Shown here: in pieces, positions 3,836 through 44,741 of the stretch | Numbering within the stretch: the stretch's first letter is position 1 | Layout of the letters: each line of letters begins with the position of its first letter | NCBI GenBank assembly: GCA_015064155.1 | Contig: SVST01000019.1 | Location: forward strand, 1-44,741 | Direction: 5' to 3' | DNA length: 44,741 bases | DNA from: Oscillospiraceae bacterium | Lineage (GTDB): Bacteria > Bacillota > Clostridia > Oscillospirales > CAG-272 | Program-made: the position numbers and the translations under genes | The notes under the pieces: model-generated | The model's input: the letters and a program-made list of their open reading frames with translations, nothing else | Database searches by the model: none | Told to the model about the DNA's origin: nothing

Positions 3836-6085
3836 ATGAAAATTACGGCAAAATGGATCGCGTCTCCCGAGGGAGATTACGCGGGCGCGCGTCTTTTCAC
3901 GAAGTGCTTTGCTCCTAAAAAGGAGATCAAAAAGGCAACCCTGTACGCCTCTGCAATGGGAATCTATGCTCCCTTTGTCAACGGCACACGCGTGGGCAAG
4001 GGCGTGCTGGCACCCGGTTGGACCTCCTACAAGTACCGCGTGCAGTATCAGGGCTACGACGTAACCGCATTGTTGACCGCCTCGGAGAACCGCATCGAGA
4101 TCGGTGTCGGACGCGGCTGGGCGGTTGGCTTTATCGGACACAAGGATACCGACCATGCCTTTTTCACACAGCCTGCGGTGATTGCATGGCTGGAGGTCGT
4201 TTATGCCGACGGAAGCCGTGACGCGCTGGAAACCGACGGTACCTGGGAGGTTTTCACGAGCGAGGTGACCTTTGCCGAGATCTATCACGGTGAAACTGTG
4301 GACAAGACCGCGGAAAAGACCTTGATCGGCAAGGCGGCTTTGATCGAGGTCAAGACCAAGCTCATTCCGTTGGTGGGCGAGGAGATCACCGAGCAGGAGC
4401 GTCTTGCTCCCGTGGAGCTGATTCATACCCCCAAGGGAGAAACGGTTCTTGATTTCGGACAGAACATGACGGGCTACGTGCAGGTGTCCCTCAAGGCTCC
4501 GCGCGGCAGTCGCATCGTGCTGCATCATGCCGAGGTGCTGGACAAGGACGGCAACTTCTACAATGAAAACTACCGTGCCGCAAGAAATGAGATGACCTAC
4601 GTTTGCAGCGGCGACGAGGACGTATTCAAGCCCACCTACTCGTTCCAGGGCTTCCGCTACGTTCGCGTGGAGGAATATCCCTTTGATACCGTCGACCCCG
4701 CGGCTTTCGTTGCGATTGCCGTGAACTCCGACATGAAGCGTACGGGTCGTTTCTCTTGCGGCAACGAAAAGATCAATCAGCTCTATCACAACATCGTTTG
4801 GGGTCAGAAGAGCAACTATCTCGACGTTCCCACCGACTGTCCGCAGCGTGACGAGCGTCTTGGCTGGACGGGTGACGCGCAGGTATTCTGCCGTACGGGT
4901 GCCATTAACTTTGACGTTGAAAAATTCTTTATCAAGTGGCTGGGTGACGTTGCCGCCGAGCAGGGCAAGGACGGCAGCGTAATGGGGATCGTACCCGATG
5001 CAATGCCCGGTTATAAGACTCGTCTTTCCGCCGCATGGGGTGACGTTGCCTGCGTGGCTCCGTGGCAGATGTATCTGGCATACGGCAACAAAAAGGCGTT
5101 GAAGCAATCCTTCCCCATGATGAAAAAATGGGTGGGATATCAGAGAAGTGCGGGTCCCGAGGAATATCTGTGGCTGGGCGGCTACCATTACGGTGACTGG
5201 TTGGCAATGGACGCGGGCGAGGATTCCTACGTGGGTGCAACCTCTTGTGACCTGATCGGCAGCGCATATTTTGCTTATTCGACCAAGCTCGTCGTGCTGG
5301 CGGGCGAGGCACTCGGTGAGGACGTGAGCGAGTACCGCGAGCTGTATGCAAACATCCGCAAGGCGTTCCGCGCATACTTCCTGGAAAACGGTATGCCCAA
5401 GGCGCAGTACCCCGTTACCGAAATCATTCCCGAGGGTCGCAAGAAGCCCATCGATCAGCTTCGTCGCGGCATGACCCAGACGGCAATCGTGCTGATTCTG
5501 CATTTTGGTCTTTGCGAGGAGAACGAGCGCGCGGCATTGGCGGCAAAGCTGGTTGAACTGATCCGCGAAAACGGCAACCGCATGACCACGGGCTTCGTCG
5601 GTACTCCGTACATTCTGCACGCGCTTTCCGAAAACGGCTACACCGACGTGGCGTACGAGCTGCTCATGCAAGAGAAGAATCCCTCTTGGCTCTACTCCGT
5701 GACCCACGGTGCCACCACCATGTGGGAGCATTGGAACAGCCTGAAGGAGGACGGCAGCTTCTGGAGCACTGCCATGAACTCCTTTAACCACTACGCATAC
5801 GGCGCGGTGTACGATTGGATCTTCGGTGTTGCCGCGGGTATCAAGCCGATTGGAGAGGTTCCCGCGTACCGCGAGATCACCGTTGAGCCGCATCCCAACA
5901 AGTGCCTGGGCTTTGTGGATACCTCGATCGACAGCCGTAACGGCACGGTCCGCATGCATTGGTATTACAAGGGGGACGCGGTTTATTACGAATTGGAGAT
6001 TCCCGAGGGCGTGACCGCGCACCTGACGTTGCCCTCCGGCTATACCGCAACGCTTTGCGGCGGCAGCTACCGCTTTGCGGAGTGA
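3836..6085 (+). CDS. Alpha-L-rhamnosidase, glycoside hydrolase family 78
   Basis: 749 residues, no signal peptide, so intracellular. The N-terminal ~300 residues are beta-sandwich modules (MGIYAPFVNGTRVGKGVLAP is the typical Bac_rhamnosid_N stretch). Residues about 329-348 carry the family's catalytic signature DVPTDCPQRDERLGWTGD, with acidic residues as the general acid region. The (alpha/alpha)6 barrel follows, and TTMWEHWNS (about 625-633) supplies the second catalytic Glu. A C-terminal beta domain closes the protein. Family enzymes are inverting hydrolases that release L-rhamnose from glycosides and polysaccharides. The ATG has AAAAGGAGAAC upstream. It is monocistronic between its own promoter and the terminator at 6125. 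The cytoplasmic location implies imported rhamnosyl-oligosaccharides or flavonoid glycosides. Confidence 0.93.
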   Translation: MKITAKWIASPEGDYAGARLFTKCFAPKKEIKKATLYASAMGIYAPFVNGTRVGKGVLAPGWTSYKYRVQYQGYDVTALLTASENRIEIGVGRGWAVGFIGHKDTDHAFFTQPAVIAWLEVVYADGSRDALETDGTWEVFTSEVTFAEIYHGETVDKTAEKTLIGKAALIEVKTKLIPLVGEEITEQERLAPVELIHTPKGETVLDFGQNMTGYVQVSLKAPRGSRIVLHHAEVLDKDGNFYNENYRAARNEMTYVCSGDEDVFKPTYSFQGFRYVRVEEYPFDTVDPAAFVAIAVNSDMKRTGRFSCGNEKINQLYHNIVWGQKSNYLDVPTDCPQRDERLGWTGDAQVFCRTGAINFDVEKFFIKWLGDVAAEQGKDGSVMGIVPDAMPGYKTRLSAAWGDVACVAPWQMYLAYGNKKALKQSFPMMKKWVGYQRSAGPEEYLWLGGYHYGDWLAMDAGEDSYVGATSCDLIGSAYFAYSTKLVVLAGEALGEDVSEYRELYANIRKAFRAYFLENGMPKAQYPVTEIIPEGRKKPIDQLRRGMTQTAIVLILHFGLCEENERAALAAKLVELIRENGNRMTTGFVGTPYILHALSENGYTDVAYELLMQEKNPSWLYSVTHGATTMWEHWNSLKEDGSFWSTAMNSFNHYAYGAVYDWIFGVAAGIKPIGEVPAYREITVEPHPNKCLGFVDTSIDSRNGTVRMHWYYKGDAVYYELEIPEGVTAHLTLPSGYTATLCGGSYRFAE

Positions 6086-14206: not shown

Positions 14207-14408
14207 TCACTTTTTCGCAAAAAAGGCAAGGTGGGCACTCAAGGGGACTTTGAATAACGCAACACGTATTGCTTTTTTTGGGGCGGACGATGCCGATTGA
14301 CGCATTGATTTGCAGACGAATGCGGCAAAAAACGGCAGACGGGTGTCGATTTTCTCAAGAAAACCGAAAAATATTTCAAAAACATCTCCCAAAAACGGGA
14401 AAATAATG
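14207..14408. other. Intergenic region between divergent promoters, no gene seen
   Basis: About 200 bases with no credible coding frame. The only structure is a near-palindrome GCAACACGTATTGC (around 14261-14274) followed by a T-run, which could be a weak hairpin. Confidence 0.4.
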
Positions 14409-14437
14409 TTGACATTGGTTTTTTTATGTGCTATAAT
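14409..14437 (+). promoter_or_regulatory. Perfect-consensus sigma-A promoter of the 922-residue membrane protein gene
   Basis: TTGACA (14409-14414), 17-bp spacer, TATAAT (14432-14437). Confidence 0.9.
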
Positions 14438-14522
14438 TGTAATGGATTATACTTTTCTATATAGTGATTCTCGTTTTTGGGGGAGAATCACGAAAAATTC
14501 AAAAACGGAAGGGTTGATACAC

Positions 14523-17291
14523 ATGAAACATCAACGCACGAAAACAAGCACGAAGAATCTCGTATGGCTGGCAATGCTTGTGGTAACGCTCGTTGCGATG
14601 ATCGGGTGCTTTACGGTGCTCGCATCTGCCAAAGAGGTTGCCGAATTGAAGCCGAACGAGGATTTCTTCATTGACCTCGACTATTCCGACGGCATTCCTA
14701 CGAAGGAATACGACGGAACGGTTATGGCACCCGTTCGTCTTAGCGAAGAAAAGCTGGACGAACTGAACGGAATGGTCGTAATCGCGCACGATCACTTGGT
14801 AAAGCTTTCTTGCGAGGCGGTTTACGATAGCGCCGGAGTAGACGCAACCAAAATTACCGTTACGGTGAAGATGGTTCCCGCGGTTGATACTCCCGAAGCA
14901 ATTGCGGCGGCAGAAAGCTACGAGGATATCATGCCTGCTCCGCAGACGATTCCCGCAAAGATCGTGCCCAAGACCCTGAACTGGGTATACGGCAATCCCG
15001 AGGGAACGCTGTTTTCCGACGTTGAATACGTCATGGGTCAGTCCGATTACACCGTTGATCTGACTCCCGATCTGTTGCCCGCACTGGACGTCACCGACGC
15101 ACCCGCACTGTTGGGTGACAGCTTCGACGTTTCGTTTTCCGGTGTAGCGGCTTCCACCGAAACCGCATCCTACACGGCAACCGTAAACGTGTCGGTGGAT
15201 AGCCCCAACTACGTGGCGGCACCTCTTTCGGTAACGCTGCGCGTCAGCCCCATCGAAATCGTAGAGATCGAATGGGAGAAATTCTGGGATTATTCGCAGT
15301 ACGTCTTTACGTGGGGCGATGCCAATATCGAGGATATCTGTGCAACCGGTAAAACCGCCGACGGCACCGAGTATCCTCTGCAGATCACCTTCCCCGCAGG
15401 CTACGGCAACGTCGGTACGCATACCGTAACCGCGTCGGCTACCGCAGGTCTTGCATTGAAGGACGGTCTTGCCAACACCATGAGCGTAACCGTTCATAAG
15501 CGCGTGTTTACCGTTATGATGAACGGTGCCAGCCATTTCGGCAGCGAGGACATGCAAACGACTCCCACCGTTCACAGCCTGACGGTTGAAACGGTTGATG
15601 AGGACGATGTGATCCCCGCAGAGATCCGTGCGCTGATTGCGTATTCCAACAACAATCAATCGGCATTCGGTACCTACGAGATTACCGCCGAGCTTCCGAT
15701 TTCGTCCAACTACGAATTCCGCGATGCCGACGGCAACGTAGTGACCTCCTTGTCCGCAACGATGTACATCAAGAGATCGTTCCTGGTTGCCGAGAGCAAG
15801 GATATTCCTTATCAGGTCATTCTGTACAGACCCGACGGCTTCCTGGATGATATCCGCGCGTCGGTTACCGTTCCGAACGATTTGAGTAAGAAGGCTCTCT
15901 CCGATTTCCCCGTATACAAGGCATACAACCTTGCCATCACGGGCGGCGCAACCGAAAGCTTTACGGTTACCATTCCGCTGTCTACCGATCTGTATCACAA
16001 GCGTTGCAACGCGCTGTCCATCAACGATCTGTATCTCTACGACAGCAACAGCGGCAAGCTGACGCCTGCCGTTGACATTACCGGCTATACCGTAACGCTG
16101 ACCGACAGTGCTTACCAGATCGAAGGCGTAAAGGGTAGTTCGAACCTGACCTTCGTGATCGCACCCGTATTCAACGCACCTTTCTGGGGTTCGATTTGGA
16201 GTATTTTGCTCACCATCTTTGTGATCCTTGCAGTGATCGCATTGATGCTGTTGGTTGGCTTGTATCTGCTCCGCATCCGCTTGAGCGAAACGCAGGGCAT
16301 GGTGATCGATACCGACGGTGACGTTCCCGAAATCGTAGATCCCGTGATCGAGGATAAGGTTGACGTTGAGGAGGCTTTGGACGACAAGCTGGATGACCTT
16401 GCAAATTCGGTTATGCCCGAGGAACCCACCGAAACCGAAGACACCGAGGGTGTTGAAGAGGCTGTTGCCGAGGCATTGGAAGAGAACTTTGAGGATGATG
16501 GTACGGCAATTGCCGCAATTGCTGTGGTTGCCGACGATGACGACGAGGATGAGGGCGAAGACGATTCCTTTGGCGGCTTTGGCGATCTGTCCTTGGATTT
16601 CTTCGATGCCAAGGAAGAGGCTGACCGTTACGCGCTCCTTTTGGAGGAGGAAAACCGAGGCGAAACCCGTATCGTAACCCGTTACCGCAGAAGCTTCCAG
16701 TCCCGCCTTGCACAGTCCCAGGGTAACGTGCAGGAGTACTACAGTGCCATTAAGAATGCGTTGCTGTCGTACAAGGGCGTGAAGAGCCGTACGAGCTGGA
16801 ACTACGAGGCATTTAACCGTGGCAGAGCACACGTTGCGAAGCTGAACGCAAAGACCAAGACCTTGTATCTGTATCTTGCGTTGGATCCTGCCGAGCTGGC
16901 AGATACCAAGTACGGTATTACCGATATGTCCTCCAAGAAGAAGTACGCATCGGTTCCCGTGCTCTTGAAGATCAAGGGTGAGCGTAAGTTCAAGTATGCG
17001 CTTGAGTTGATCGAGAAGCTGTGCGCTGAAGACATGGCACTCCAGAAGCTGGACGTTGCAGAGATCGACTACAAGCCGGCATATCAGACCACCGAGGAGT
17101 TGGTTGAGGCAGGTCTTGTGAAGAAGATGGTTGCAGGCGTACCGATCGTGTACGGCGAGCAGCCCGTATCCGAGGAGCCCGTTGAGCCCGTAACGGCGGC
17201 AACCGAGGATCAGGAGGTTTCCTTCGTAGAGCCTACCGACGATCCCGCAGTCGCTGCAGCGGCGCAGGACGACGCAACCGAGAACGTATAA
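14523..17291 (+). CDS. Large membrane-anchored protein with extracellular beta repeats and a conserved cytoplasmic C-terminal domain
   Basis: 922 residues from ATG 14523 (MKHQRTKTSTKNLVW; GGAAGGG upstream). A signal/transmembrane helix (about 13-35) precedes a ~510-residue extracellular region rich in beta strands, with MBG/Ig-like segments such as VKMVPAVDTPE, SVTLRVSPIEIVEIEW and TYEITAELPISSNYEF. A transmembrane helix lies at about 554-587 (WSILLTIFVILAVIALMLLV). A very acidic linker follows (about 600-690), then a cytoplasmic domain at about 726-880 with YYSAIKNALLSYKGVKSRTS, AKTKTLYLYLALDPAEL and KKYASVPVLLKIKGERKFKY. That last domain recurs in uncharacterised clostridial proteins; I know no function for it. 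The layout, sensing outside and a basic domain inside, suggests a surface receptor or adhesin. Codon use matches neighbours. Confidence 0.85.
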   Translation: MKHQRTKTSTKNLVWLAMLVVTLVAMIGCFTVLASAKEVAELKPNEDFFIDLDYSDGIPTKEYDGTVMAPVRLSEEKLDELNGMVVIAHDHLVKLSCEAVYDSAGVDATKITVTVKMVPAVDTPEAIAAAESYEDIMPAPQTIPAKIVPKTLNWVYGNPEGTLFSDVEYVMGQSDYTVDLTPDLLPALDVTDAPALLGDSFDVSFSGVAASTETASYTATVNVSVDSPNYVAAPLSVTLRVSPIEIVEIEWEKFWDYSQYVFTWGDANIEDICATGKTADGTEYPLQITFPAGYGNVGTHTVTASATAGLALKDGLANTMSVTVHKRVFTVMMNGASHFGSEDMQTTPTVHSLTVETVDEDDVIPAEIRALIAYSNNNQSAFGTYEITAELPISSNYEFRDADGNVVTSLSATMYIKRSFLVAESKDIPYQVILYRPDGFLDDIRASVTVPNDLSKKALSDFPVYKAYNLAITGGATESFTVTIPLSTDLYHKRCNALSINDLYLYDSNSGKLTPAVDITGYTVTLTDSAYQIEGVKGSSNLTFVIAPVFNAPFWGSIWSILLTIFVILAVIALMLLVGLYLLRIRLSETQGMVIDTDGDVPEIVDPVIEDKVDVEEALDDKLDDLANSVMPEEPTETEDTEGVEEAVAEALEENFEDDGTAIAAIAVVADDDDEDEGEDDSFGGFGDLSLDFFDAKEEADRYALLLEEENRGETRIVTRYRRSFQSRLAQSQGNVQEYYSAIKNALLSYKGVKSRTSWNYEAFNRGRAHVAKLNAKTKTLYLYLALDPAELADTKYGITDMSSKKKYASVPVLLKIKGERKFKYALELIEKLCAEDMALQKLDVAEIDYKPAYQTTEELVEAGLVKKMVAGVPIVYGEQPVSEEPVEPVTAATEDQEVSFVEPTDDPAVAAAAQDDATENV

Positions 17292-31219: not shown

Positions 31220-31846
31220 TTATTTCATGGTATGGTATGCGTCCAACCACTGACGCTTGATAAAATCGTGACCGGGTGCATCGGGATGGACTCCATCGCG
31301 CAGCCAGTAATCGGCGGGTGCCTGCTCCAAGAGCGCGTCAAAGCCCGCCTGCAGAGGAACGAAAGTCAGGTTGTAACGCTCGGCAACCTTTTTTGCCATC
31401 ATGGCTCTCTTGCGTGCCTCGACGTCGAAAAATTCCCAGTGATCGTCGGTGGCGGTGCCGTGCAGAACGAAGGGCTCCAGAATCATGATCTTGATATTGG
31501 GGAGTGCTTCCCGAATCTCTTCGATCAGCATGCAGTAGATCTTGTAGAACTTGTCGGCATCCACACCGTTGGGATCGTCGTGTGCATCGTGCCACACGTC
31601 GTTGATACCGATCAGAATGCTCATCAGGTCGGGTTTCAGATTGATGATGTCCTTTTTGATGCGCGCGTAAACGTCAACGATGCGGTTGCCGCTGATGCCG
31701 CGGTTGATAAAGGTATGCTGCTCGGCGGCTTCCTCAAAGCCCAGCTGACCCTTTACCATCGTGGGGTAGCCGATGCCGGTTTTGACGTCGCGCTCGCGAT
31801 CTCTGCCGCAATCGGTGATCGAATCGCCTTGGAATAGAATCTTCAT
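31220..31846 (-). CDS. SGNH/GDSL hydrolase (esterase/lipase family)
   Basis: 208 residues from ATG 31846 (MKILFQGDSITDCG), set by AAGGGAGG six bases upstream. Block I GDSIT with nucleophile Ser9, block II NRGISGNRI (oxyanion Gly), block III IGINDVWHD (oxyanion Asn), block V DGVHPDAPGH (catalytic Asp and His). No signal peptide, so cytoplasmic. Family members deacetylate or de-esterify sugars, lipids and peptidoglycan fragments; the short GDSL form fits a carbohydrate esterase. A MITE-like repeat now sits between this gene and its likely ancestral promoter. Confidence 0.92.
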   Translation of the reverse strand: MKILFQGDSITDCGRDRERDVKTGIGYPTMVKGQLGFEEAAEQHTFINRGISGNRIVDVYARIKKDIINLKPDLMSILIGINDVWHDAHDDPNGVDADKFYKIYCMLIEEIREALPNIKIMILEPFVLHGTATDDHWEFFDVEARKRAMMAKKVAERYNLTFVPLQAGFDALLEQAPADYWLRDGVHPDAPGHDFIKRQWLDAYHTMK

Positions 31847-31880
31847 AATAAACCTCCCTTGGAAAATAACAAAAGATCGT

Positions 31881-32179
31881 AAGGACATTATAGTCCTTCA
31901 GACTGTAGACAAAAGGCGTATTCAATCGTACATTGTACAAAGAACAATCCCTCAGTCACCTACGGTGCCAGCTTCCTTTACACAAGGGAGCCTAAAAGGG
32001 GTTCTTTGCGCTAAAACAACTGTATTTCCGAGGCAAATGATTTCTTGACGCCTCCCCTGTGTAAGAGGGAGAAAATTTGCAAGCAAATTGGCACGGCTTG
32101 CCGTGACGGAGGGGTTGTTTTTATTACTTTGATAATTATACTTGCTTTGGTCTACACTCTCAAGGACATTATAGTCCTT
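31881..32179. mobile_element. MITE-like element, complete copy, flanked by identical 18-bp palindromes
   Basis: AAGGACATTATAGTCCTT occurs at 31881-31898 and again at 32162-32179. Inside these are inverted ends CAGACTGTAGACAAAAG (31899-) and the complement of CTTTGGTCTACACTCTC (-32161). Inside those is a second nested inverted repeat running from AACAATCCCTCAGTCAC (31944) to GGAGGGGTTGTT (32119). Bases 31988-32149 match the truncated copy at 111-271. No transposase is encoded, so mobilisation would need one in trans. Confidence 0.75.
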
Positions 32180-35613: not shown

Positions 35614-35714
35614 GCCCGGACGTTTGCCGACACGCTTTCGACTTTTTTACACGTCGTACACAATTTTTGAATACAACCGCGCAAAAACGCGGTCTTTGGA
35701 AGGAGAATTTTCTT

Positions 35715-36572
35715 ATGAAGCTTGGTGTAATCAGTGATTGCTTTAAGAAGACCATGGAGGAAAGCATTGCGGCGGCTGCCGCGCTGAAGCTTTCGGGCAT
35801 TCAGATGTATGCGGTCAGCGGTGACATCTGCCCCGAGGCACTTACCGATGCCGATATTGCACGCTACAAGAAGCTGCTTGCCGACAACAATCTGTCTGTC
35901 AGCGCACTGTGCGGGGACCTTGGCGGTCACGGCTTTGAGATTGCAGAGGACAATGCCGAAAGAATCGAAAAAACCAAAAAAATCGTTGACCTTGCGGTCA
36001 AATTCGACACCAAGGTGGTCACCACCCATATCGGTGTGATTCCCGAGGATACCGCAAGCGAAAAGTATCAAACCATGCTGTCGGCACTCCGTGAGTGCGG
36101 CGCGTATGCCGCAAGCAAGGGTGTTACGCTTGCCATCGAAACCGGTCCCGAGGTGGCTCCCGTGCTGAATACCTTCGTTCGCGCAGCTGGCGACGGTGTC
36201 GGTGTCAACCTTGACCCCGCAAACTTCGTGATGGTGACGGGTCAGGATCCTGCCGAGGCGGTTTATCTGCTTCGTGAAAAGATCGTTCACACCCATCTCA
36301 AGGACGGAAAAATGCTCAAGAAATCGGATCCCGTGGAGATCTACCGTTGCTTTGCGGAGGGCGGTATCGATGCTTTGAACGTAGCCGATTACTTCATCGA
36401 AACCCCGATCGGAGAGGGTGACGTTGATTTTGCCGCTTACCTGAAGGCTTTGCGCGAGGTCGGCTTCAACGGCTACCTGACCATTGAGCGTGAAACCGGT
36501 GCGGATCCCTCCCTTGACATTGCCAAGGCGGCAAGCTATATCCGCGACGGCTTTGCACAGTATCTGGATTGA
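35715..36572 (+). CDS. Sugar phosphate isomerase/epimerase family protein (AP endonuclease 2-like TIM barrel)
   Basis: 285 residues from ATG 35715 (MKLGVISDCFKKT, AGGAG ten bases upstream). The TIM-barrel pattern is KLSGIQMYAV, VSALCGDLGGHGF, KVVTTHIGVIP, VTLAIETGPE (metal Glu), GVNLDPANFVM (Asp/His position), IVHTHLKDGKML (metal His) and GYLTIERETG (metal Glu). Members include xylose-isomerase-like epimerases and inositol dehydratases; the substrate is unknown. It lies 101 bases after tyrS with a small CCGCG/CGCGG hairpin between, and may read through from it. I see no convincing promoter of its own. Confidence 0.88.
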   Translation: MKLGVISDCFKKTMEESIAAAAALKLSGIQMYAVSGDICPEALTDADIARYKKLLADNNLSVSALCGDLGGHGFEIAEDNAERIEKTKKIVDLAVKFDTKVVTTHIGVIPEDTASEKYQTMLSALRECGAYAASKGVTLAIETGPEVAPVLNTFVRAAGDGVGVNLDPANFVMVTGQDPAEAVYLLREKIVHTHLKDGKMLKKSDPVEIYRCFAEGGIDALNVADYFIETPIGEGDVDFAAYLKALREVGFNGYLTIERETGADPSLDIAKAASYIRDGFAQYLD

Positions 36573-36704: not shown

Positions 36705-36732
36705 TTGAAGTTTGGTTCGAATCGGCTATAAT
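36705..36732 (+). promoter_or_regulatory. Promoter of MBL paralogue 1
   Basis: TTGAAG (36705-36710), 16-bp spacer, TATAAT (36727-36732). Confidence 0.7.
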
Positions 36733-36803: not shown

Positions 36804-38480
36804 ATGAGTATTTTAAAAGTATGCCAAGGTGTTGCGCCTCTTGCGGAATCGATCGCTCTCAAGGACGGCGGGGAGCTGATCCTTTTGCGCGACAGTTCCG
36901 TCGATCAGTATCGCGCGGTGATCGCAGCGGTGGAAGCGGCAGGCTTTTCCTACGACAGCGACCGCAAGGAGGGCGAGGTTCTGTTTGCAACCTACGCAAA
37001 GGGGAGCCACGTTCTTTTGATTTCCTACGTCCCGTTGGACAACGCAACCCGTGTGATCTCGGAGGAAAACACTGTCATTCCTCCCCGTGAGAGCAACCCG
37101 AAGCAGCTTTGCACGCCCCTGATGACACAGCTCAAAACCCCGTATTTGATTTGTGACTGCGGGATGTCGTATCTGATGCGCTTGTGCGACGGCAGATTTA
37201 TCGTCATCGACGGCGGACTCGGTGAATACGAGGAAACCGAATATCTGCTGGAAACCATGGAAAAGCAGAACGTGCTGGGCGGCAAGCCGATCATTGAGGC
37301 ATGGTTTATCACGCATTGGCACGGCGACCACTATTTCGTGATGTGCGACATGATGGAACGCTTCGGTGACCGCGTGGAGTTCCGCACGCTGTTGGTGAAC
37401 ACCCCCCTGATGTATGATTTCCCGAACCGTGTCAAGGCAATGATGGAGGCGCATCCCGAAATTCGCCTGATCGTTCCGCACACGGGTCAACGCTTCGTAT
37501 ATGCCGATGCAACGCTCGACGTGATGTACGCTTGCGAGGACCACTATCCCGGTGAATTCAGAGATTCCAACGACACCTCTACCATTATCCGCATGGAGCT
37601 TGCCGGACGCCGCGTGCTTTGGCTGGGCGACTCCTCTCCTCTGTCCTCCAATATTGCAGCCGACCGTTTCCCCAAGGAATCGCTCCTTTGCGAATTTTTG
37701 CAGGTGGGTCACCACGGCTACACCGGAGGCTCTCATCGGATGTACCGTGCGGCAAGCCCCGAATATCTGCTGTGGCCTTGTCCCGATTATTGGTATGCGA
37801 TGGTAAAATATTGGGGCTCTAACCACGTGCTGCTCAGCGAATCTCCCCGTTGCAAGGGTATTTTCGTTGCGGGTCATGCCGAAACCACCTTTGATATGAC
37901 CAAGCCGGTTGAGGCAAAGGATCCTTGGAAATTCTTTGCGGACGGCGAAACCGTTTACGAGCAGAATTTTGCCGGCAACCGCGTACTCGATCTGGGCTGG
38001 AACTTCGTTACCGGCGGCAGCCACGGTTACCGTGCGCCCAAGGTCGTACTGAACGAGGGCAGTGCAACCGTTACCACCGCCGCAGAGAATGCGTATGCCG
38101 TTTTGCAGTTCATTTTCCGTGCGCAGATGGACCGTATGTCGTCGTTTACGCTCAACTTCTCGGGCAAGCTGACCGCAGGAACCGAAAAATTCGGTCTGTT
38201 CTATCTGTATCCGCTTCTCAAGGGCTACGAATTGAGTGGCGAATGGCGCAGAAACAGCTTCTGCGAGGATGACGCGATGTGGTTTACACCTTCCTCCGAG
38301 GACGGTAGCTTTGCGTATTGCATCAAGTTCGATGCCGATACGCGCAGTGCGGTCGTATACGAGAACGGCGCGGAGATTGCAACCTACAAGTATCGCAAGG
38401 AAGAGGGAAGCGCTTTGTACTTCCTCCTGCGAAACGGTGAGGTTACCTTTGACCATATCAAGCTCGTAAAGGGCGTATAA
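36804..38480 (+). CDS. MBL-fold (ComEC-like) metallohydrolase, paralogue 1 of 4
   Basis: 558 residues from ATG 36804 (AGGAG ten bases upstream), no signal peptide. The N-terminal domain (about 1-115) starts with an ELILLRDSSVDQYRAVIAAV-type segment shared by all four paralogues. The MBL core (about 118-390) opens CDCGMSYLMRLCDGRFIVID, has the metal motif HWHGDH at 171-176, the metal Asp in VLWLGD (Asp276) and VGHHGY at 301-306. VGHHGY and the LGD spacing are like the ComEC/Rec2 MBL domain. The C-terminal ~170 residues, ending DHIKLVKGV, are beta-rich and conserved. The fold predicts hydrolysis of a phosphodiester, ester or lactone; the substrate is unknown. This copy has HW instead of HP in the motif and is the most diverged from paralogues 3 and 4. 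Confidence 0.85.
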   Translation: MSILKVCQGVAPLAESIALKDGGELILLRDSSVDQYRAVIAAVEAAGFSYDSDRKEGEVLFATYAKGSHVLLISYVPLDNATRVISEENTVIPPRESNPKQLCTPLMTQLKTPYLICDCGMSYLMRLCDGRFIVIDGGLGEYEETEYLLETMEKQNVLGGKPIIEAWFITHWHGDHYFVMCDMMERFGDRVEFRTLLVNTPLMYDFPNRVKAMMEAHPEIRLIVPHTGQRFVYADATLDVMYACEDHYPGEFRDSNDTSTIIRMELAGRRVLWLGDSSPLSSNIAADRFPKESLLCEFLQVGHHGYTGGSHRMYRAASPEYLLWPCPDYWYAMVKYWGSNHVLLSESPRCKGIFVAGHAETTFDMTKPVEAKDPWKFFADGETVYEQNFAGNRVLDLGWNFVTGGSHGYRAPKVVLNEGSATVTTAAENAYAVLQFIFRAQMDRMSSFTLNFSGKLTAGTEKFGLFYLYPLLKGYELSGEWRRNSFCEDDAMWFTPSSEDGSFAYCIKFDADTRSAVVYENGAEIATYKYRKEEGSALYFLLRNGEVTFDHIKLVKGV

Positions 38481-38495
38481 TTGAATTTTTTCGGA

Positions 38496-38530
38496 ACGCT
38501 CCGCGGTTTTGTACTGCGGGGCGTTTTTGA
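38496..38530 (+). terminator. Rho-independent terminator after MBL paralogue 1
   Basis: AACGCTCCGC pairs with GCGGGGCGTT (one mismatch) and is followed by TTTG. Confidence 0.75.
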
Positions 38531-38562
38531 TTTTGATATATTTTTAACTTTCCGGAAATACG

Positions 38563-38591
38563 TTGACTTTTTGCCCCGAAAAGAGTATACT
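38563..38591 (+). promoter_or_regulatory. Promoter of MBL paralogue 2
   Basis: TTGACT (38563-38568), 17-bp spacer, TATACT (38586-38591). Leader about 26 bases. Confidence 0.8.
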
Positions 38592-38622
38592 GTGCTCAAA
38601 TCAACCGACGGAGGAGTTCAAA

Positions 38623-40287
38623 ATGGAAATTTTACGCACGTTGCGCGCAATCGAGCGCTATACCGAGAGCATCCCCTGCTATTTGGAGGGTCAGGAGCTG
38701 TTTATTGTCCGTAAGGCAACCGAGGAACGCTATCTTGCCGTTTTGGAGGTGTTGCGGGGCTTGGGCTTTTGCGAGCGCAGTCACCGACAGATGGGAGAGG
38801 TGTTGTTTGACGTTTTGGTACGGGAAAACGAGTCGTTGTTCTGCTCCTTTTCTCCCAACGATCGGTTTATTCGCGTGGTGCGGGAATTGGATCACCGATT
38901 CTCCACGGAAAGCCCCTTGGAGGGAGAGGTCCGCGTCAACCCCTTGGTGACGCAGCTTCGCGGTGCGTATCTCGGCACCGATGCCGGAATGGGGTATCTG
39001 ATCCGTCTTTCGGACGGCAGATTTATCATGATCGACGGCTTTGTGGGCGAATACGAGGAGCCCGATTATCTGATGGACGTGATCCGTTCGCAAAATCAAA
39101 GAGCCGGCAAGCCCGTGATCGCGGCGTGGTTTGTGACGCACCCCCACGGTGATCACTATTTCGGGACTGCACGGTTTATGAAAAAATACGGAGATGCGGT
39201 GGAACTGAAGCACTTGATCTACAATTTCCCGCGCCCCGATATGGTGAATTTCAGCAACCCTATGGAATTTAACGAGATGGTGGAAGAGTGGCGCGATCGC
39301 ATTGAGATCTATACGCCGCATGCGGGAGAGCGTTTTGTCTACGGAGATGCCTGCTTTGACGTTTTGTGTACCGGGGAGGATCTGTACCCCGACCGCGGCT
39401 TGCTCTGCAACAGCACGTCGCTCGTGATGATGATGGAGCTTGCGGGGCGGCGCGTGCTTTGGCTGGGAGATCTGAAAAAGGACGGCGGCGATTTTATTGC
39501 AAGACGGTATCCCGCGGAGCTTTTGCAGTGCGAGTTTTTGCAGGTGGGACATCACGGCTACGGCATCAATTCCAAAAAGCTGTACCGCACCGTCAACCCC
39601 GAGGTTCTGATGTGGCCGTGCGCCGATTATTGGTACCCCGTGGTGAGTCTTTCGGAGCCGAACCAACTGCTTTTGAGTCATGAAAGCATCCGCGTGCTGG
39701 ATATCTGCGGTCAGGGGGAGGTAACCTACGACTTCACAAAGCCCGTGGAGCAGACGACCCCGTACCGCGATTTTGCCGACGGTGAAACGGTGTACCTCCA
39801 ACGCTTTGAATGTCCCCGCGTGCTGGATCTTTGGTGGAACAGCGTGGTGGGCGGTGCTTCGGGCTACCGCGCGCCGAAATATGCCCTGGAAAACGGTGCT
39901 CTGACCGCCAAAACGACGGCAGAGGAGGTTTATTCGGTGGTTCAATTCGTGCAGCGCGGACAGATGGATCGTTTGGATTCCTTTACGCTTTGCGTGCGTG
40001 GAAAATGCGAGCTGAGCGAGGGGCTGTTCGGACTTTTCTGGAACTATCCGAACGTCACGGTCTTTGACGAATCCGCGCTTTGGGAGATTCCCGCAGGCGA
40101 GGACGGAGCCTTTGAATTTTGCTTGTCTGCCGATGCCGAAACGAAAAAAGCAACCCTTGCTTGCAACGGAAAAACGGTGAGAACCGATGCTTATGAAAAG
40201 CAACGGGGCAGCGGCTTGAACTTCGTTTTGAAAAACGCGGTGCTTACTTTGCACGAGATCAAGCTGATCAAGGGCGTTCAAAAATGA
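38623..40287 (+). CDS. MBL-fold (ComEC-like) metallohydrolase, paralogue 2 of 4
   Basis: 554 residues from ATG 38623 (GGAGGAG upstream). Same three-part architecture: N-terminal domain with LEGQELFIVRKATEERYLAV, MBL core with DAGMGYLIRLSDGRFIMID, metal motif HPHGDH at 173-178, VLWLGD, LQCEFLQVGHHGY and MWPCADYW, then the beta-rich C-terminus ending EIKLIKGVQK. All metal ligands seen in paralogue 1 are kept, so it should be active. It lacks the initial Cys of the CDCGMSYL motif (TDAGMGYL here). Own promoter; the terminator at 40347 ends the unit. Function unknown. Confidence 0.85.
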   Translation: MEILRTLRAIERYTESIPCYLEGQELFIVRKATEERYLAVLEVLRGLGFCERSHRQMGEVLFDVLVRENESLFCSFSPNDRFIRVVRELDHRFSTESPLEGEVRVNPLVTQLRGAYLGTDAGMGYLIRLSDGRFIMIDGFVGEYEEPDYLMDVIRSQNQRAGKPVIAAWFVTHPHGDHYFGTARFMKKYGDAVELKHLIYNFPRPDMVNFSNPMEFNEMVEEWRDRIEIYTPHAGERFVYGDACFDVLCTGEDLYPDRGLLCNSTSLVMMMELAGRRVLWLGDLKKDGGDFIARRYPAELLQCEFLQVGHHGYGINSKKLYRTVNPEVLMWPCADYWYPVVSLSEPNQLLLSHESIRVLDICGQGEVTYDFTKPVEQTTPYRDFADGETVYLQRFECPRVLDLWWNSVVGGASGYRAPKYALENGALTAKTTAEEVYSVVQFVQRGQMDRLDSFTLCVRGKCELSEGLFGLFWNYPNVTVFDESALWEIPAGEDGAFEFCLSADAETKKATLACNGKTVRTDAYEKQRGSGLNFVLKNAVLTLHEIKLIKGVQK

Positions 40288-40346
40288 TCCGACGGCTTGC
40301 TCATCCCTTTTCGGATGGGTAAAAAGCCTTGTCGGACGGTGTATCT

Positions 40347-40401
40347 AAAAGACGGTCAAGGTTTTGTTTGCGCAAATCACGAGTCTTGATCGTCTTTTTT
40401 T
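40347..40401 (+). terminator. Terminator after MBL paralogue 2 (duplicated element)
   Basis: AAAAGACGGTCAAG pairs with CTTGATCGTCTTTT (one mismatch) and continues in TTT. A homologous terminator lies at 42388-42448. Confidence 0.8.
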
Positions 40402-40446
40402 GACCGGGAGTTAAAAAACGGCAACAACATAACAAAAAAATGATAA

Positions 40447-40497
40447 CCCATTTCCAAAAATGAGATATTGCGAAAGGGGTGTAAATCATAGTATAAT
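40447..40497 (+). promoter_or_regulatory. Promoter of MBL paralogue 3 with adjacent imperfect palindrome
   Basis: Imperfect palindrome CCCATTT-CCAA-AAATGAG (40447-40464), then TTGCGA (40468-40473), 18-bp spacer, TATAAT (40492-40497). The same arrangement precedes paralogue 4. The leader to the ATG is about 160 bases and starts with the hairpin AAAAAGC-TT-GCTTTTT. Confidence 0.65.
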
Positions 40498-40663
40498 ACG
40501 CGTACAAACGTGGAAAAAGCTTGCTTTTTGCGGCGCGGAATCTATCGTTTTCGAAAGGACGGAAGCCGCTGTCGGCAAACGGAATTCTTGCTTGATTCAC
40601 GTTGAATTTGCGGCTTGCTCGCGCGCATACGCGACGGGCTGCCGCGCGAAAGGAAAAAATGCC

Positions 40664-42337
40664 ATGAACAATTTCGCTTTGCTTCAAGAGCTTCGTAAGT
40701 TCTCGGTACTCACCGACACGCATCGGTGTTACGACGGTGCAGAGCTGTTTTTGCTCCGCAAGGGAACTGCCGAGCAATACGGCGAGCTGCTTGCCCTTTT
40801 GAACGGACTCGGTTTTTCCGAGAAAAGACGGCAAGAGATTGGTGAGGTCCTCTTTAACGTGCTGGCAGACGGCGCACACGTGCTGACCTGCTCGTACACA
40901 CCGTTCGACGGAAGAATCCGCGTTTTTTCGCAGGAAAACGGTGTGGTTCCGCCGATCGAAGAGCAGCCCGTAAAGCAGATCGCCACGCCGCTTCTGACGC
41001 AGGTCAGAACCGCGTACGTCTATTGCGATTGCGGAATGTCCTATTTGCTCCGCTTGAGTGACGGTCGATTTGTGATGATCGACGGTAACGCAGGGGAGTA
41101 TGAAGAGCCCGATTACCTGATGGATCTGGTCAACCAACAGAACGTGCTTCCGGGTAAGCCCGTGTTTGCGGCATGGATTATTACCCATCCGCACGGCGAC
41201 CACTACTGGGGATTTTCCAGATTCCTTGCAAAGTACGGTGACCGAGTGGAGCTCGGAGACGTGATCTATAACTTTTTGCGCACGGACTTAAAATACTTTG
41301 GCGGTGCGCCGGATTTTGAGGATTTGCTTGTCAAATTCCAAGGACGTCTTCGCCCGATTACCGCGAGAACGGGTCACGTATTCCGCTACGGTGACGCAGA
41401 GCTTCAATTCCTGACGTCGCCCGACGATCTGTATCCCCCCGATACTCGGTTGGACCCCAATAACGCATCACTTTCCTTTATGCTGACCTTTGCGGGACGC
41501 AGAATTTTCATTCTCGGAGATCTTTGCTACACGGGTGCAAGCTACGCGTGCCAAAGATTCCCTGCCGACACCTTCAAGTGTGAATTCCTCCAGGTCGGTC
41601 ATCACGGCTACTGGGGCGGCTCCGAGCAGCTGTACCGTGCCGCAGATCCCGATTTCCTCTTGTGGCCTTGCCCCGATTTCTGGTTTGCGAGAGTGCGCGA
41701 CTGGAACCCCAATCAGGTGCTGTTTGAGGAGTGCAAGCATATCAAGGGCATCTTTGTTGGCGGACAGCGCGAGGACGTGATCGATATGACCAAGCCCACC
41801 GAGTACGTCAGCCACTACGTTGACGTTGCCGACGGGGAAACGGTTTACGAGGAGCATTGTAACCCACGGCGCGTGATCGATCTCGGTTGGAACTGTGTTT
41901 GCGGCGGCAAAACGGGCTACAGCGGTGCGGTTTTCACGCTTGGTGAGGACGGTGTAACGATGGATTGCATCACTCGCAACACTCCCGTGGTTTGTATGTT
42001 CGTACAGCGCGGACAGATGGATCTGCTTTCCGACTTTACCCTGACGATGAGGGGCAAGATTGACCTGCAGTCCGAAAGCTTCGGCTTGTACTGGAACTAC
42101 CCGAATCACGATCAGTTCAGTGCATCGGACGTGCTTCCCGTTTTCCACGATGCTGACGGCAGCTTTGATCTCAAGTTGACGGCGGATTCGGCGGCGGGTC
42201 TTGCGAAAATATACCACAACGGTGCGTTGATCGCAACGCTTCCGTACGCAAAAAAGCCCGACAGCGGTCTTTACTTCGTGATGAAGAGAGCGCGCGTTAC
42301 CATGCGTGACGTGAAGCTTGTCAAGGGCGTTCACTAA
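40664..42337 (+). CDS. MBL-fold (ComEC-like) metallohydrolase, paralogue 3 of 4
   Basis: 557 residues from ATG 40664 (GAAAGGAAA upstream); an open frame extends further upstream, but it crosses the promoter and leader. N-terminal domain with CYDGAELFLLRKGTAEQYGE, MBL core with CDCGMSYLLRLSDGRFVMID, metal motif HPHGDH at 175-180, IFILGD, VGHHGYWGGS and LWPCPDFWFARVRDW. The C-terminal beta domain ends DVKLVKGVH. It is very similar along its whole length to paralogue 4, so the two are a recent tandem duplication. All metal ligands are intact. A cytoplasmic hydrolase of unknown substrate. Confidence 0.85.
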   Translation: MNNFALLQELRKFSVLTDTHRCYDGAELFLLRKGTAEQYGELLALLNGLGFSEKRRQEIGEVLFNVLADGAHVLTCSYTPFDGRIRVFSQENGVVPPIEEQPVKQIATPLLTQVRTAYVYCDCGMSYLLRLSDGRFVMIDGNAGEYEEPDYLMDLVNQQNVLPGKPVFAAWIITHPHGDHYWGFSRFLAKYGDRVELGDVIYNFLRTDLKYFGGAPDFEDLLVKFQGRLRPITARTGHVFRYGDAELQFLTSPDDLYPPDTRLDPNNASLSFMLTFAGRRIFILGDLCYTGASYACQRFPADTFKCEFLQVGHHGYWGGSEQLYRAADPDFLLWPCPDFWFARVRDWNPNQVLFEECKHIKGIFVGGQREDVIDMTKPTEYVSHYVDVADGETVYEEHCNPRRVIDLGWNCVCGGKTGYSGAVFTLGEDGVTMDCITRNTPVVCMFVQRGQMDLLSDFTLTMRGKIDLQSESFGLYWNYPNHDQFSASDVLPVFHDADGSFDLKLTADSAAGLAKIYHNGALIATLPYAKKPDSGLYFVMKRARVTMRDVKLVKGVH

Positions 42338-42387
42338 GCTTTTCCAAAAATCATAGAGCCGGCAACGGATTGTTGGACGGTGTACCT

Positions 42388-42448
42388 AAAAAGACGGTCA
42401 AGGTTTTGTTTTGTTTGCACAAATCATGAACTTTGACTGTCTTTTTTT
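42388..42448 (+). terminator. Terminator after MBL paralogue 3 (duplicated element)
   Basis: AAAAGACGGTCAAGG pairs imperfectly with CTTTGACTGTCTTTT, followed by TTT. It corresponds to 40347-40401. Confidence 0.75.
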
Positions 42449-42494
42449 GACGGAAAGTTAAAAAAATGGCAACAATGAAACAAAAAAATGATAA

Positions 42495-42544
42495 CCCATT
42501 TCCAAAAATGGGATATTGCGAAAAGATTGTAAATCATATATAAT
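42495..42544 (+). promoter_or_regulatory. Promoter of MBL paralogue 4 with perfect palindrome upstream
   Basis: Perfect palindrome CCCATTT-CCAA-AAATGGG (42495-42512), then TTGCGA (42516-42521), 17-bp spacer, TATAAT (42539-42544). The leader of about 177 bases is homologous to that of paralogue 3. Confidence 0.7.
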
Positions 42545-42727
42545 ATGAGTACGAATGCGAAAAAAGCTTGCGTTTTTTGCGGCTCGGAGTCTTTGGTTTT
42601 CGAGGGGACGGTTGCCGCTTTCAAAAAAACGGAATTCCTGCTTGATTTGCGTCGAAACTGCGGCTTGCCCGCGCGTCCGCGCGTATGCGCATGAGCATGA
42701 GGGCTCCCGCATGAAAGGAAAAATGTC

Positions 42728-44398
42728 ATGAACAATTTCACCTTGTTTCAAGAACTTCGCAAGTTCTCCTGCCTCACCGATATGCATCGGTGTGACGACG
42801 GTGCGGAGCTGTTTTTGCTCCGTAAGGGAACTCCCGAGCGATACGGCGAGCTGCTTGACTTTTTGAAGGGTCTCGGTTTTTCGGAGGAAAGACAGCACAC
42901 CATCGGCGACGTTCTCTTCAACGTGCTGGCAGACGGCGCACACGTGCTGACCTGCTCGTACACGCCGTTCGATGAAAGAATGCGCGTGGTTTCACAGGAG
43001 AACGGTGTGGTTCCTCCGATCGAGGAGCAGCCTGCAAAGCAGATCACCACGCCGCTTCTGACGCAGGTCAGAACCGCGTACATCTTCTGCGACTGCGGCA
43101 TGTCCTACCTGCTTCGTCTGTGCGACGGTCGGTTCATCATGATCGACGGAAATGCGGGCGAGTACGAGGAATCGGATCACCTGATGGACATTCTGAACGA
43201 GCAGAACGTGCTTCCCGGTAAGCCCACCTTTGCGGCATGGTTCATCACGCATCCGCACGGTGACCATTTCCAAGGATTTTCGCGCTTCATCAAGAAGTAC
43301 GGTGACCAAGTTGAGCTTGGCGACGTGATCTACAACTACGCACGCACCGATTGCTCGGGACGCAGCAATATGGCTCCGTTCGACGAGTTCCTTGCCGATA
43401 ACGGAAACCGTATCCGCGTGATCACCGCAAGAAGCGGACAGGTCTTCCGCTATGCCGATGCAGAGTTTGAAACGCTGACGGCGGCTGAGGATCTGTACCC
43501 GATCGATAAGGTCAACTGCAACGATACCTCGCTCTCCTTTATGCTGACCTTTGCGGGACGTAGAATCCTGATTTTGGGTGACCTGCAGGGCAAGGGTGCC
43601 GATTATGCGGGCAAGAGATTCCCCGCGTCCGCCTTCAAGTGCGAGCTTTTGCAGGTTGGACACCACGGCTACTGGGGTGCCTCCGAAACCATTTACCGTG
43701 CGGCAGATCCCGAGCTTTTGCTGTGGCCTTGCCCCGACTTTTGGTTTGCAAGAGTGAGAGGCTGGAAGCCCAACCAAGTGCTTTTTGAGGAATGTCAGAA
43801 CATTCGCGGTATTTTCGTGGGCGGTCAGCGCGAGGACGTGCTGGATATGACCAAGCCCATCGAATACGTCAGCCATTACGTAGACGTTGCCGACGGCGAA
43901 ACGGTTTACGAGGAGCATTGCGACCCGAAGCGCGTGATGGATCTCGGTTGGAACTGTGTATGCGGCGGCAGTACGGGATATAACGGCGCAATCTTCACCT
44001 TGGGTGACGACGGCGTTACCATGGATTCCCTGATCCGTGAAAATCCCGTGGTTTGTATGTTCGTACAGCGCGGACAGATGGATCTGCTGAACGACTTTAC
44101 CTTGACGCTCAAGGGCAAGGTTGATCCGCAATCCGAAAGCTTCGGCTTGTATTGGAACTATCCGAGCCACGACAAATTCAGTGCATCAGACGTGCTTCCC
44201 GTTTTCCACGACTCGGACGGCAGCTTTGAGTTCAAGCTGACGGCGGATTCGGCGGCAGGTCTTGCAAAAATATACCACAACGGTGCGTTGGTTGCAACGC
44301 TGCCGTACGTGAAAAAGCCCGACAGCGGTCTTTACTTCGTTATGAAAAAGGCATACGTCACCGTGCGCGACGTAAAGCTTGTCAAGGGCGTTCACTAA
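42728..44398 (+). CDS. MBL-fold (ComEC-like) metallohydrolase, paralogue 4 of 4
   Basis: 556 residues. N-terminal domain with CDDGAELFLLRKGTPERYGE, MBL core with CDCGMSYLLRLCDGRFIMID, metal motif HPHGDH at 175-180, ILILGD, LLQVGHHGYWGAS and LWPCPDFWFARVRGW; C-terminal domain ending DVKLVKGVH. GAAAGGAAA precedes the ATG. It differs from paralogue 3 mainly around residues 195-265, the segment after the metal motif, which suggests substrate-side divergence. A lipoprotein gene follows 37 bases later with no terminator between, so both are probably on one transcript. Confidence 0.85.
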   Translation: MNNFTLFQELRKFSCLTDMHRCDDGAELFLLRKGTPERYGELLDFLKGLGFSEERQHTIGDVLFNVLADGAHVLTCSYTPFDERMRVVSQENGVVPPIEEQPAKQITTPLLTQVRTAYIFCDCGMSYLLRLCDGRFIMIDGNAGEYEESDHLMDILNEQNVLPGKPTFAAWFITHPHGDHFQGFSRFIKKYGDQVELGDVIYNYARTDCSGRSNMAPFDEFLADNGNRIRVITARSGQVFRYADAEFETLTAAEDLYPIDKVNCNDTSLSFMLTFAGRRILILGDLQGKGADYAGKRFPASAFKCELLQVGHHGYWGASETIYRAADPELLLWPCPDFWFARVRGWKPNQVLFEECQNIRGIFVGGQREDVLDMTKPIEYVSHYVDVADGETVYEEHCDPKRVMDLGWNCVCGGSTGYNGAIFTLGDDGVTMDSLIRENPVVCMFVQRGQMDLLNDFTLTLKGKVDPQSESFGLYWNYPSHDKFSASDVLPVFHDSDGSFEFKLTADSAAGLAKIYHNGALVATLPYVKKPDSGLYFVMKKAYVTVRDVKLVKGVH

Positions 44399-44435: not shown

Positions 44436-44741
44436 ATGAAAAAACTTTCTTGGGTAAGAGTACTGTCTATGTTGCTTGTAGTAGCAATGTTGACGTGCTG
44501 CTTTGCTGCCTGCGGTTCTTCCGACGAAAAGGAAGATGCTACCACGGCGGCACCCGAAACCAGTGATGCACCCGCATCCTCGACCGTGCCCGTAACGTCC
44601 GACGAGCCCGAGTCTTCCGTTGAGGAGCCCGAGTCCTCCGTAGAGGAGCCCGAGTCCTCCGTTGAGGAGCCCGAGTCTTCCGTAGAGGAGCCCGAGTCTT
44701 CCGTAGAGGAGCCCGAGTCTTCCGTTGAGGAGCCCGAGTCT
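44436..44741 (+). CDS. Lipoprotein with EEPESSV heptad repeats (partial, runs off right edge)
   Basis: 102 residues are visible. MKKLSWVRVLSMLLVVAMLT starts a signal peptide with lipobox FAAC (Cys26), then a Ser/Thr/Asp/Ala linker, then a heptad repeat (E/D)EPESSV from about residue 56 to the window edge. AGAGAGGAA precedes the ATG. The repeat looks like an acidic, extended stalk that lifts a distal domain off the membrane; that domain is beyond the window. It is probably cotranscribed with MBL paralogue 4. It may be a binding protein or surface enzyme; nothing visible decides this. Confidence 0.82.
   Translation, partial: MKKLSWVRVLSMLLVVAMLTCCFAACGSSDEKEDATTAAPETSDAPASSTVPVTSDEPESSVEEPESSVEEPESSVEEPESSVEEPESSVEEPESSVEEPES
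44601..44741. repeat. Tandem 21-bp repeat within the lipoprotein gene
   Basis: At least six full units of GAGGAGCCCGAGTC(T/C)TCCGT, with only third-position changes (TCT/TCC, GTT/GTA). The repeat reaches the window end. Confidence 0.9.

What the first reader, a model, noticed from the sequence alone, without database searches (positions are those of the whole stretch)
36804..44398. Four tandem paralogous MBL-fold proteins of about 555 residues with a shared three-domain architecture
Seen: four consecutive genes with the same N-terminal ~115-residue domain, an MBL core carrying HxHGDH, LGD and VGHHGY, and a conserved beta-rich C-terminus ending in (L/I)KGV. Each has its own promoter. Known: VGHHG plus HxHxDH in this spacing is typical of the ComEC/Rec2-type MBL domain and related phosphodiesterases. 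Inference: this is an expanded cytoplasmic hydrolase family, perhaps acting on related nucleotides, lactones or phosphoesters. Independent promoters and one divergent segment suggest different substrates or conditions. I recognise no named family for the full-length architecture.
Basis: partly seen in the sequence, partly recalled or inferred. Interest (0 to 1): 0.7.

Follow-up and report, generated by a model that had tools for sequence, protein, structure and literature searches.

The report
Tandem sugar-linked metallo-hydrolases in gut Clostridia
Four neighbouring genes of an uncultured gut bacterium encode related metal-dependent hydrolases, from a large unnamed enzyme family whose members are repeatedly joined to sugar-binding domains, so they probably cut a sugar-linked ester during sugar use.

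Summary
Four intact genes (558, 554, 557 and 556 aa) lie in tandem at 36804-44398. They are diverged duplicates, not assembly copies. Each protein has a small N-terminal alpha/beta domain, a metallo-beta-lactamase (MBL) core and a C-terminal beta-sandwich. Searches of Pfam, NCBIfam, PADLOC and PDB sequences gave no entry for the whole architecture. By predicted fold and by profile, the core sits closest to the ComEC nuclease domain and the teichoic-acid phosphorylcholine esterase Pce, both phosphodiesterases. Its metal-site residues are kept in at least 72 of 74 aligned family members. Relatives join the same core to Laminin_G_3, to ASRT (a predicted sugar-binding domain) or, weakly matched, to NAGLU_N/GH67N-like domains. 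The window's own C-terminal domain is homologous to tandem CBM_4_9-like modules encoded beside a secreted relative in the same genus. I read the array as a lineage-specific expansion of a cytosolic, sugar-directed metal hydrolase, most likely a phosphodiesterase. P3 and P4 differ most in one segment of the core. The substrate is not shown, and the window's own genome has only cytosolic forms. It is a new variant of a known kind and a good candidate for assay.

The parts
36804..38480 (+). P1 (P0001), 558 aa: N-domain, MBL core, beta-sandwich C-domain
38623..40287 (+). P2 (P0002), 554 aa, same architecture
40664..42337 (+). P3 (P0003), 557 aa, same architecture; 78% identical to P4
42728..44398 (+). 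P4 (P0004), 556 aa; modelled (mean pLDDT 95, pTM 0.93)
42728..43027 (+). [not shown]
43040..43876 (+). P4 MBL core (about residues 105-383): H175, H177, D179, H180, N265, D285, H312, H313
43334..43507 (+). P4 residues 203-260, fast-diverging segment of the MBL core, between HxHGDH and motif III
43880..44395 (+). P4 C-terminal beta-sandwich, CBM66/YesU-like; homologous to secreted tandem modules in same-genus genomes
36705..36732 (+). promoter-like site before P1 (10 of 12)
38563..38591 (+). promoter-like site before P2 (10 of 12)
40468..40497 (+). promoter-like site before P3 (10 of 12)
42516..42544 (+). promoter-like site before P4 (10 of 12)
35712..36572 (+). xylose-isomerase-like TIM barrel (AP_endonuc_2, E 1.8e-34), the gene directly upstream; suggestive neighbour only

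Best explanation
The four genes are lineage-specific tandem duplicates of a cytosolic metal-dependent hydrolase. The MBL core is of the ComEC/Pce branch and should bind metal, probably two ions, through H175, H177, D179, H180, D285 and H312, with Asn (N265) at motif III as in ComEC. A metal-bound hydroxide would attack an ester, most likely a phosphodiester, on a sugar or oligosaccharide that the C-terminal CBM66/YesU-like sandwich helps to hold. In other genomes of the genus and family, secreted lipoprotein relatives would do the same to glycans outside the cell; in the window's genome only cytosolic forms were found, so there the substrate is taken up or made inside. P1-P4, with separate promoter-like sites and (P3/P4) a fast-changing core segment, would serve different but related substrates. 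Shown by computation: the duplication, the predicted fold, the metal-site conservation, no signal peptide found in P1-P4, and the domain fusions of relatives. Inferred: catalysis, number of metals, phosphodiester chemistry, sugar substrate, different substrates.
Against: No assay of this family is known to me. ComEC acts on DNA and Pce on phosphorylcholine, so phosphodiester chemistry is by analogy; 2wyl (a UlaG-type lactonase, identity recalled) is also in the Foldseek list. Motif III is Asn, unlike Pce. The window's genome (86% complete) showed no secreted family member: six matches, four of them the array, and none of the ~500-aa lipoproteins at E 1e-20. Neighbours of the window-type clade are mixed and often housekeeping. 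The isomerase neighbour belongs to a family with 28 matches in this genome. No member of the C-domain alignment matches a Pfam family at E below 0.003. The C-domain was not folded by itself.
Confidence: 0.46

Rival explanations
1. A sugar-directed MBL hydrolase with non-phosphate chemistry: a lactonase, carboxylic esterase or glycosidase acting on sugar acids or acylated sugars.
For: The sugar-domain evidence fits equally. Foldseek also lists 2wyl (UlaG-type, identity recalled) at E 2.5e-8. A GDSL esterase lies five genes from the array (31220-31888) and its homologue four genes from the L106 member; a gene next to the L077 member looks like one by eye only.
Against: The two nearest structures, by a wide Z gap, are phosphodiesterases. 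The GDSL genes fall in the 'far' set, 0 of 218 near genes.
Confidence: 0.28
2. A DNA or RNA nuclease, like the ComEC domain, used for nucleotide salvage or competence.
For: Best fold match is the ComEC nuclease domain, and motif III Asn is as in ComEC.
Against: No Competence, OB or beta-CASP domain found. Many relatives are secreted, and sugar-associated domains recur in relatives.
Confidence: 0.1
3. A sugar-binding sensor or scaffold that has lost catalysis.
For: Cytosolic ASRT-type domains are proposed as sugar sensors (PMC2739507, passages).
Against: Metal-site residues are kept in at least 72 of 74 family rows.
Confidence: 0.06
4. A nucleotide or signal hydrolase in anti-phage defence (6A-MBL, Avs1a, LmuA-like).
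For: Weak partial matches: LmuA E 1.6e-8 over residues 246-314 of P4; 6A-MBL 20 bits, Avs1a 19 bits.
Against: Far below the cut-offs of 220 and 420 bits. No PADLOC hit in the three neighbouring-region proteins scanned. The matches cover only part of the MBL core.
Confidence: 0.05

Closest known systems
ComEC/Rec2 C-terminal MBL domain (9ic4; TIGR00361)
   Different: No membrane channel or OB domain found; HxHxDH complete, whereas ComEC has Asp for one motif II His (paper passage); 27 bits or less against a cut-off of 190.
Teichoic acid phosphorylcholine esterase Pce/CbpE (2bib, 1wra)
   Different: Motif III is Asn, not His; C-domain is a CBM-like sandwich, not choline-binding repeats; no signal peptide found in the window's proteins.
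CBM66 / YesU-like concanavalin-type sandwich (4b1m, 1oq1)
   Same: Foldseek matches of the whole model that can only be its C-domain (placement inferred).
   Different: 12-13% identity in the best chains; ligand unknown; fused to an MBL.
ASRT-bearing cytosolic clade (PF07100)
   Same: Same N-domain and MBL core; own genome has one copy on contig C3.
   Different: C-domain not detectably related to the window's (hhalign probability 0.1%).

Membership tests
MBL superfamily (PF00753) | HxHxDH, later Asp and His ligands, alpha-beta-beta-alpha fold | tested here: met
   All four pass the Pfam cut-off of 22.7 bits; residues; fold.
ComEC/Rec2 | Competence (PF03772) channel and DUF4131 OB domain on the same chain | tested here: not met
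   Neither found in the four proteins at E up to 1; the same library found both in a true ComEC, L073.
ComEC/Rec2 | Asn in place of motif III His | tested here: met
   N265 in 74 of 74 rows; rule from a PMC8579336 passage; equivalence of position inferred.
ComEC/Rec2 | Metal-dependent DNA nuclease | not testable with these tools
   Needs assay.
Pce phosphorylcholine esterase | Motif III His | tested here: not met
   Asn in 74 of 74 rows; equivalence of position inferred.
Pce phosphorylcholine esterase | Choline-binding repeats | tested here: not met
   No such Pfam hit in the four proteins at E up to 1.
Pce phosphorylcholine esterase | Hydrolysis of phosphorylcholine esters | not testable with these tools
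   Needs assay.
RNase J / CPSF nucleases | beta-CASP domain | tested here: not met
   No such Pfam hit in the four proteins at E up to 1.
6A-MBL, Avs1a defence MBLs | NCBIfam equivalog cut-off | tested here: not met
   20 of 220 and 19 of 420 bits at best.
Carbohydrate-binding module (CBM_4_9/CBM66-like) for the C-domain | Sequence or fold relation to a CBM | tested here: met
   Profile E 3e-25 to tandem modules of L037 4915-7218 (1.2e-8 with the window four alone), which pass CBM_4_9; CBM66 Foldseek E 5.7e-6. The C-domains of alignment A4 themselves hit no Pfam CBM.
Carbohydrate-binding module (CBM_4_9/CBM66-like) for the C-domain | Sugar binding | not testable with these tools
   Needs binding assay.

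The most novel reading that the evidence does not exclude
A whole class of carbohydrate-active enzymes built on the MBL fold: a ComEC/Pce-type metal core that herbivore-gut Clostridia have expanded to as many as about 25 copies per genome, as secreted lipoproteins and cytosolic enzymes, to cut phosphodiester or other linkages of dietary or microbial glycans. The window array would be a cytosolic specificity series.
Probability: 0.32. Interest if true: 0.82.

Novelty: new variant of a known kind. Interest (0 to 1): 0.55.

Why it matters
133 of 295 genomes searched in this uncultured family carry the module at E up to 1e-20 (counted from the table, checked), and same-genus genomes hold up to 25 matches. 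Yet I found no named family for it. If it acts on glycans, a sizeable part of glycan use in herbivore gut bacteria has been hidden behind the label 'MBL fold'. The four diverged copies give a ready set for testing how one core segment changes specificity.

Tried and rejected
Assembly artefact: rejected; copies differ at synonymous and non-synonymous sites and are on one contig.

Operon logic for the window clade: I saw no conserved operon across orders. The AP_endonuc_2 TIM barrel is the next gene in 5 of 42 loci (6 of 218 near genes, 3 of 243 far genes), but ten genomes hold 3 to 36 matches each, so this is weak. Pfam counts of all 218 near genes were mixed; the far genes were not scanned with Pfam.

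The ~500-aa lipoprotein beside 8 of 42 loci (7 of 218 near, 2 of 243 far genes): 2 of 9 members match SBP_bac_1, best 4e-6, none a PDB chain. It proved very abundant, 7 to 114 matches in 11 of 12 genomes searched, and absent at E 1e-20 from the window's genome. So its adjacency is weak evidence. Its profile also touches the lipoprotein gene after P4 (E 2.4e-7), but only over the signal peptide and linker (model positions 1-61); rejected as homology.

Secreted partner in the window's genome: not found. This cut my confidence in the inside/outside pairing for this organism from 0.48 to 0.46 overall.

3-keto-glycoside pathway: considered because Gfo/Idh dehydrogenases and isomerases lie near some members (L103, L106, L109); an idea only; papers seen as a listing (12 of 22).

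Mobile spread: no plasmid match, no viral-contig match with P4's six patterns, three weak faecal phage contigs. The viral fold library added nothing specific: two unnamed MBL-like and many concanavalin-like hits.

Papers: listings on MBL fold with polysaccharide use (3 of 3), ComEC/Pce (9 of 9), glycoside hydrolases (12 of 210), rumen (10 of 6,022), phosphocholine (2 of 2) and ASRT (6 of 18). In the rows shown I saw none on this family; longer lists were not read. Passages only were read of PMC8579336, PMC12455585, PMC5031224 and PMC2739507.

Caveats on counts: searches count every match, and a true ComEC can score 2e-9 (L073), so single weak matches may be ComEC. One search scored at most four candidates in most genomes; 84 rows, 10 five-prime-open set aside; it includes L073 and only P4 of the window; P1-P4 were tested. 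In one search win_P3 and L063 were labelled 'secreted' only because stop-to-stop frames were used.
Full report
Observation. They encode 558, 554, 557 and 556 residues with the stated motifs and C-terminal ending. P3 and P4 are 78% identical and the other reported pairs 43-46%. The upstream regions of P3 and P4 are also duplicated (82% of 356 aligned bases; shuffled mean 43%). A 10-of-12 promoter-like site precedes each gene, in a region where 9 sites were found on both strands and 4.6 expected. The contig, and so the window, ends at 44741 inside a 21-base repeat.

Family. The profile of the four found matches in 231 of 295 genomes of the same family at E up to 1e-3. Because a true ComEC scored 2e-9 (L073), I counted the genomes at E up to 1e-20 in that table: 133 of 295. 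In the genus 34 of 35 genomes match at E up to 1e-5, with up to 25 matches each. Many matches cover only the N-domain plus MBL core. The window-type architecture reaching into the C-domain is rare: 6 of 295 family genomes (rows reaching position 543 at E up to 1e-75), 3 other genomes of 394 in the order at E up to 1e-62, one of them without the C-domain, 2 others of 391 in the class, and no other of 398 in the phylum at E up to 1e-50. Among these only the window's genome showed four. The 37 named loci are all metagenome-assembled Clostridia, many from ruminants or other herbivores; one of them (L073) is a true ComEC.

Two locations. Of 84 relatives' frames (10 five-prime-open set aside, L073 included), those with an N-terminal extension of 60 or more residues have a signal-peptide-like start in 40 of 49 cases, 30 with a lipobox; those without have none in 25 of 25. 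The rule is a simple hydrophobicity script, not SignalP. A quick maximum-likelihood tree of 85 rows puts the four window genes together (SH-aLRT 97), inside a 15-row clade (100). By the same script 14 of these 15 show no signal peptide and one (L103) is borderline. A separate 14-row clade (100), also 14 of 14 without signal, includes the own-genome copy on contig C3. The tree has long branches and was a quick search. The window's genome itself has six matches, none with the N-terminal extension of the secreted type.

Sugar link. Several unrelated sugar-associated domains are joined to the same core. (1) The second cytosolic clade carries ASRT (PF07100) in 12 of 14 members, best E 1.7e-7; the own-genome copy scores 23.8 bits, just under the cut-off of 25. 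ASRT is a predicted sugar-binding domain (PMC2739507, passages). It is not detectably related to the window's C-domain. (2) Of nine proteins scanned, eight have the MBL core (one being the ComEC L073): two have Laminin_G_3, one of these also a weak GLUG, and another a weak NAGLU_N match; the ninth, without MBL core, passes CBM_4_9. Of 44 N-terminal extensions scanned (44 of 45 listed), GLUG matched 3 (best 1.2e-8), and NAGLU_N (2), GH67N (1) and GH20b (1) matched weakly, best E 4e-4 to 3.5e-3. (3) The C-domain profile of 11 members hits three tandem modules (E 3.1e-25) of the secreted protein at L037 4915-7218, and two further secreted proteins in L107 (E 8.8e-18, 2.7e-7). That profile includes the C-domain of L037's own MBL; with the four window proteins alone the hits are 1.2e-8 (L037) and 1.5e-7 (the first L107 protein), and the other L107 protein is not found. 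L037's passes the CBM_4_9 cut-off; one of the L107 two has a sub-threshold CBM_4_9 match, the other none. In both same-genus genomes (G177, G1042) the order is ~500-aa lipoprotein, two secreted proteins, then a secreted MBL lipoprotein bearing the window-type C-domain (in G177 only the second of the two secreted proteins matched the profile). In G177 the cytosolic window-type enzyme follows. The ~500-aa lipoprotein family is very abundant in 11 of 12 genomes but absent from the window's, so its adjacency alone says little.

Context of the window. Directly upstream is an AP_endonuc_2 TIM barrel; nearby are an Amidohydro_2 protein and a GDSL esterase and, 30 kb away, an alpha-L-rhamnosidase. AP_endonuc_2 is the next gene in 5 of 42 loci, but the window's genome has 28 matches, so I give this little weight.

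Divergence. P3 and P4 differ most in residues 203-260, 27 of 58 identical against 407 of 498, with pN 0.36 against 0.10 and similar pS. The block 205-224 is also the most variable of the 20-residue blocks of the core in the 74 rows (entropy 3.41 bits). In the chain it lies between HxHGDH and motif III, where MBL enzymes often have substrate loops (recalled). Its distance from the metals was not measured. This supports diverging specificity, but relaxed constraint would look alike.

Reading. Best explanation: cytosolic, sugar-directed metal hydrolase, most likely a phosphodiesterase (0.46). Rivals: sugar lactonase, esterase or glycosidase (0.28), nuclease (0.10), inactive sensor (0.06), defence nucleotide enzyme (0.05). 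What is shown is the duplication, predicted fold, conserved metal site, two locations across the family and domain fusions. What is inferred is catalysis, chemistry and substrate.

Noticed in passing
window 44604-44741: A 21-base tandem repeat (6.6 copies) encoding an ESSVEEP-type repeat in a lipoprotein gene; the contig ends inside it.
   Followed up: partly
L006 811-1461 and 1462-2298 (G000 contig C4): A weak own-genome relative: an MBL-only frame preceded by a separate 216-aa frame without Pfam match; whether one gene or two is unclear.
   Followed up: partly
alignment A10 (L037 1837-3351 and eight relatives): A very abundant ~500-aa lipoprotein family, 7 to 114 matches per genome in 11 of 12 family genomes and none in the window's genome; only 2 of 9 members match SBP_bac_1.
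   Followed up: partly
window 3836-6085: An alpha-L-rhamnosidase (Bac_rhamnosid6H E 1.2e-107), with a regulator-like gene by eye at 2821-3726.
   Followed up: partly
window 14310-17291: A 993-aa frame, membrane protein by eye, with a weak MBG_2 match (E 0.007); function unknown.
   Followed up: partly
phage records MT837908, MT836253, MT835845: Three unannotated human faecal phage contigs encode stretches 23-26% identical to P4 over 40-46% of it.
   Followed up: no
L048 8157-9206, L052 7799-8809, L037 14569-15720: A conserved protein that looked like a TIM-barrel glycosidase by eye recurs near family members in three loci; not identified.
   Followed up: no
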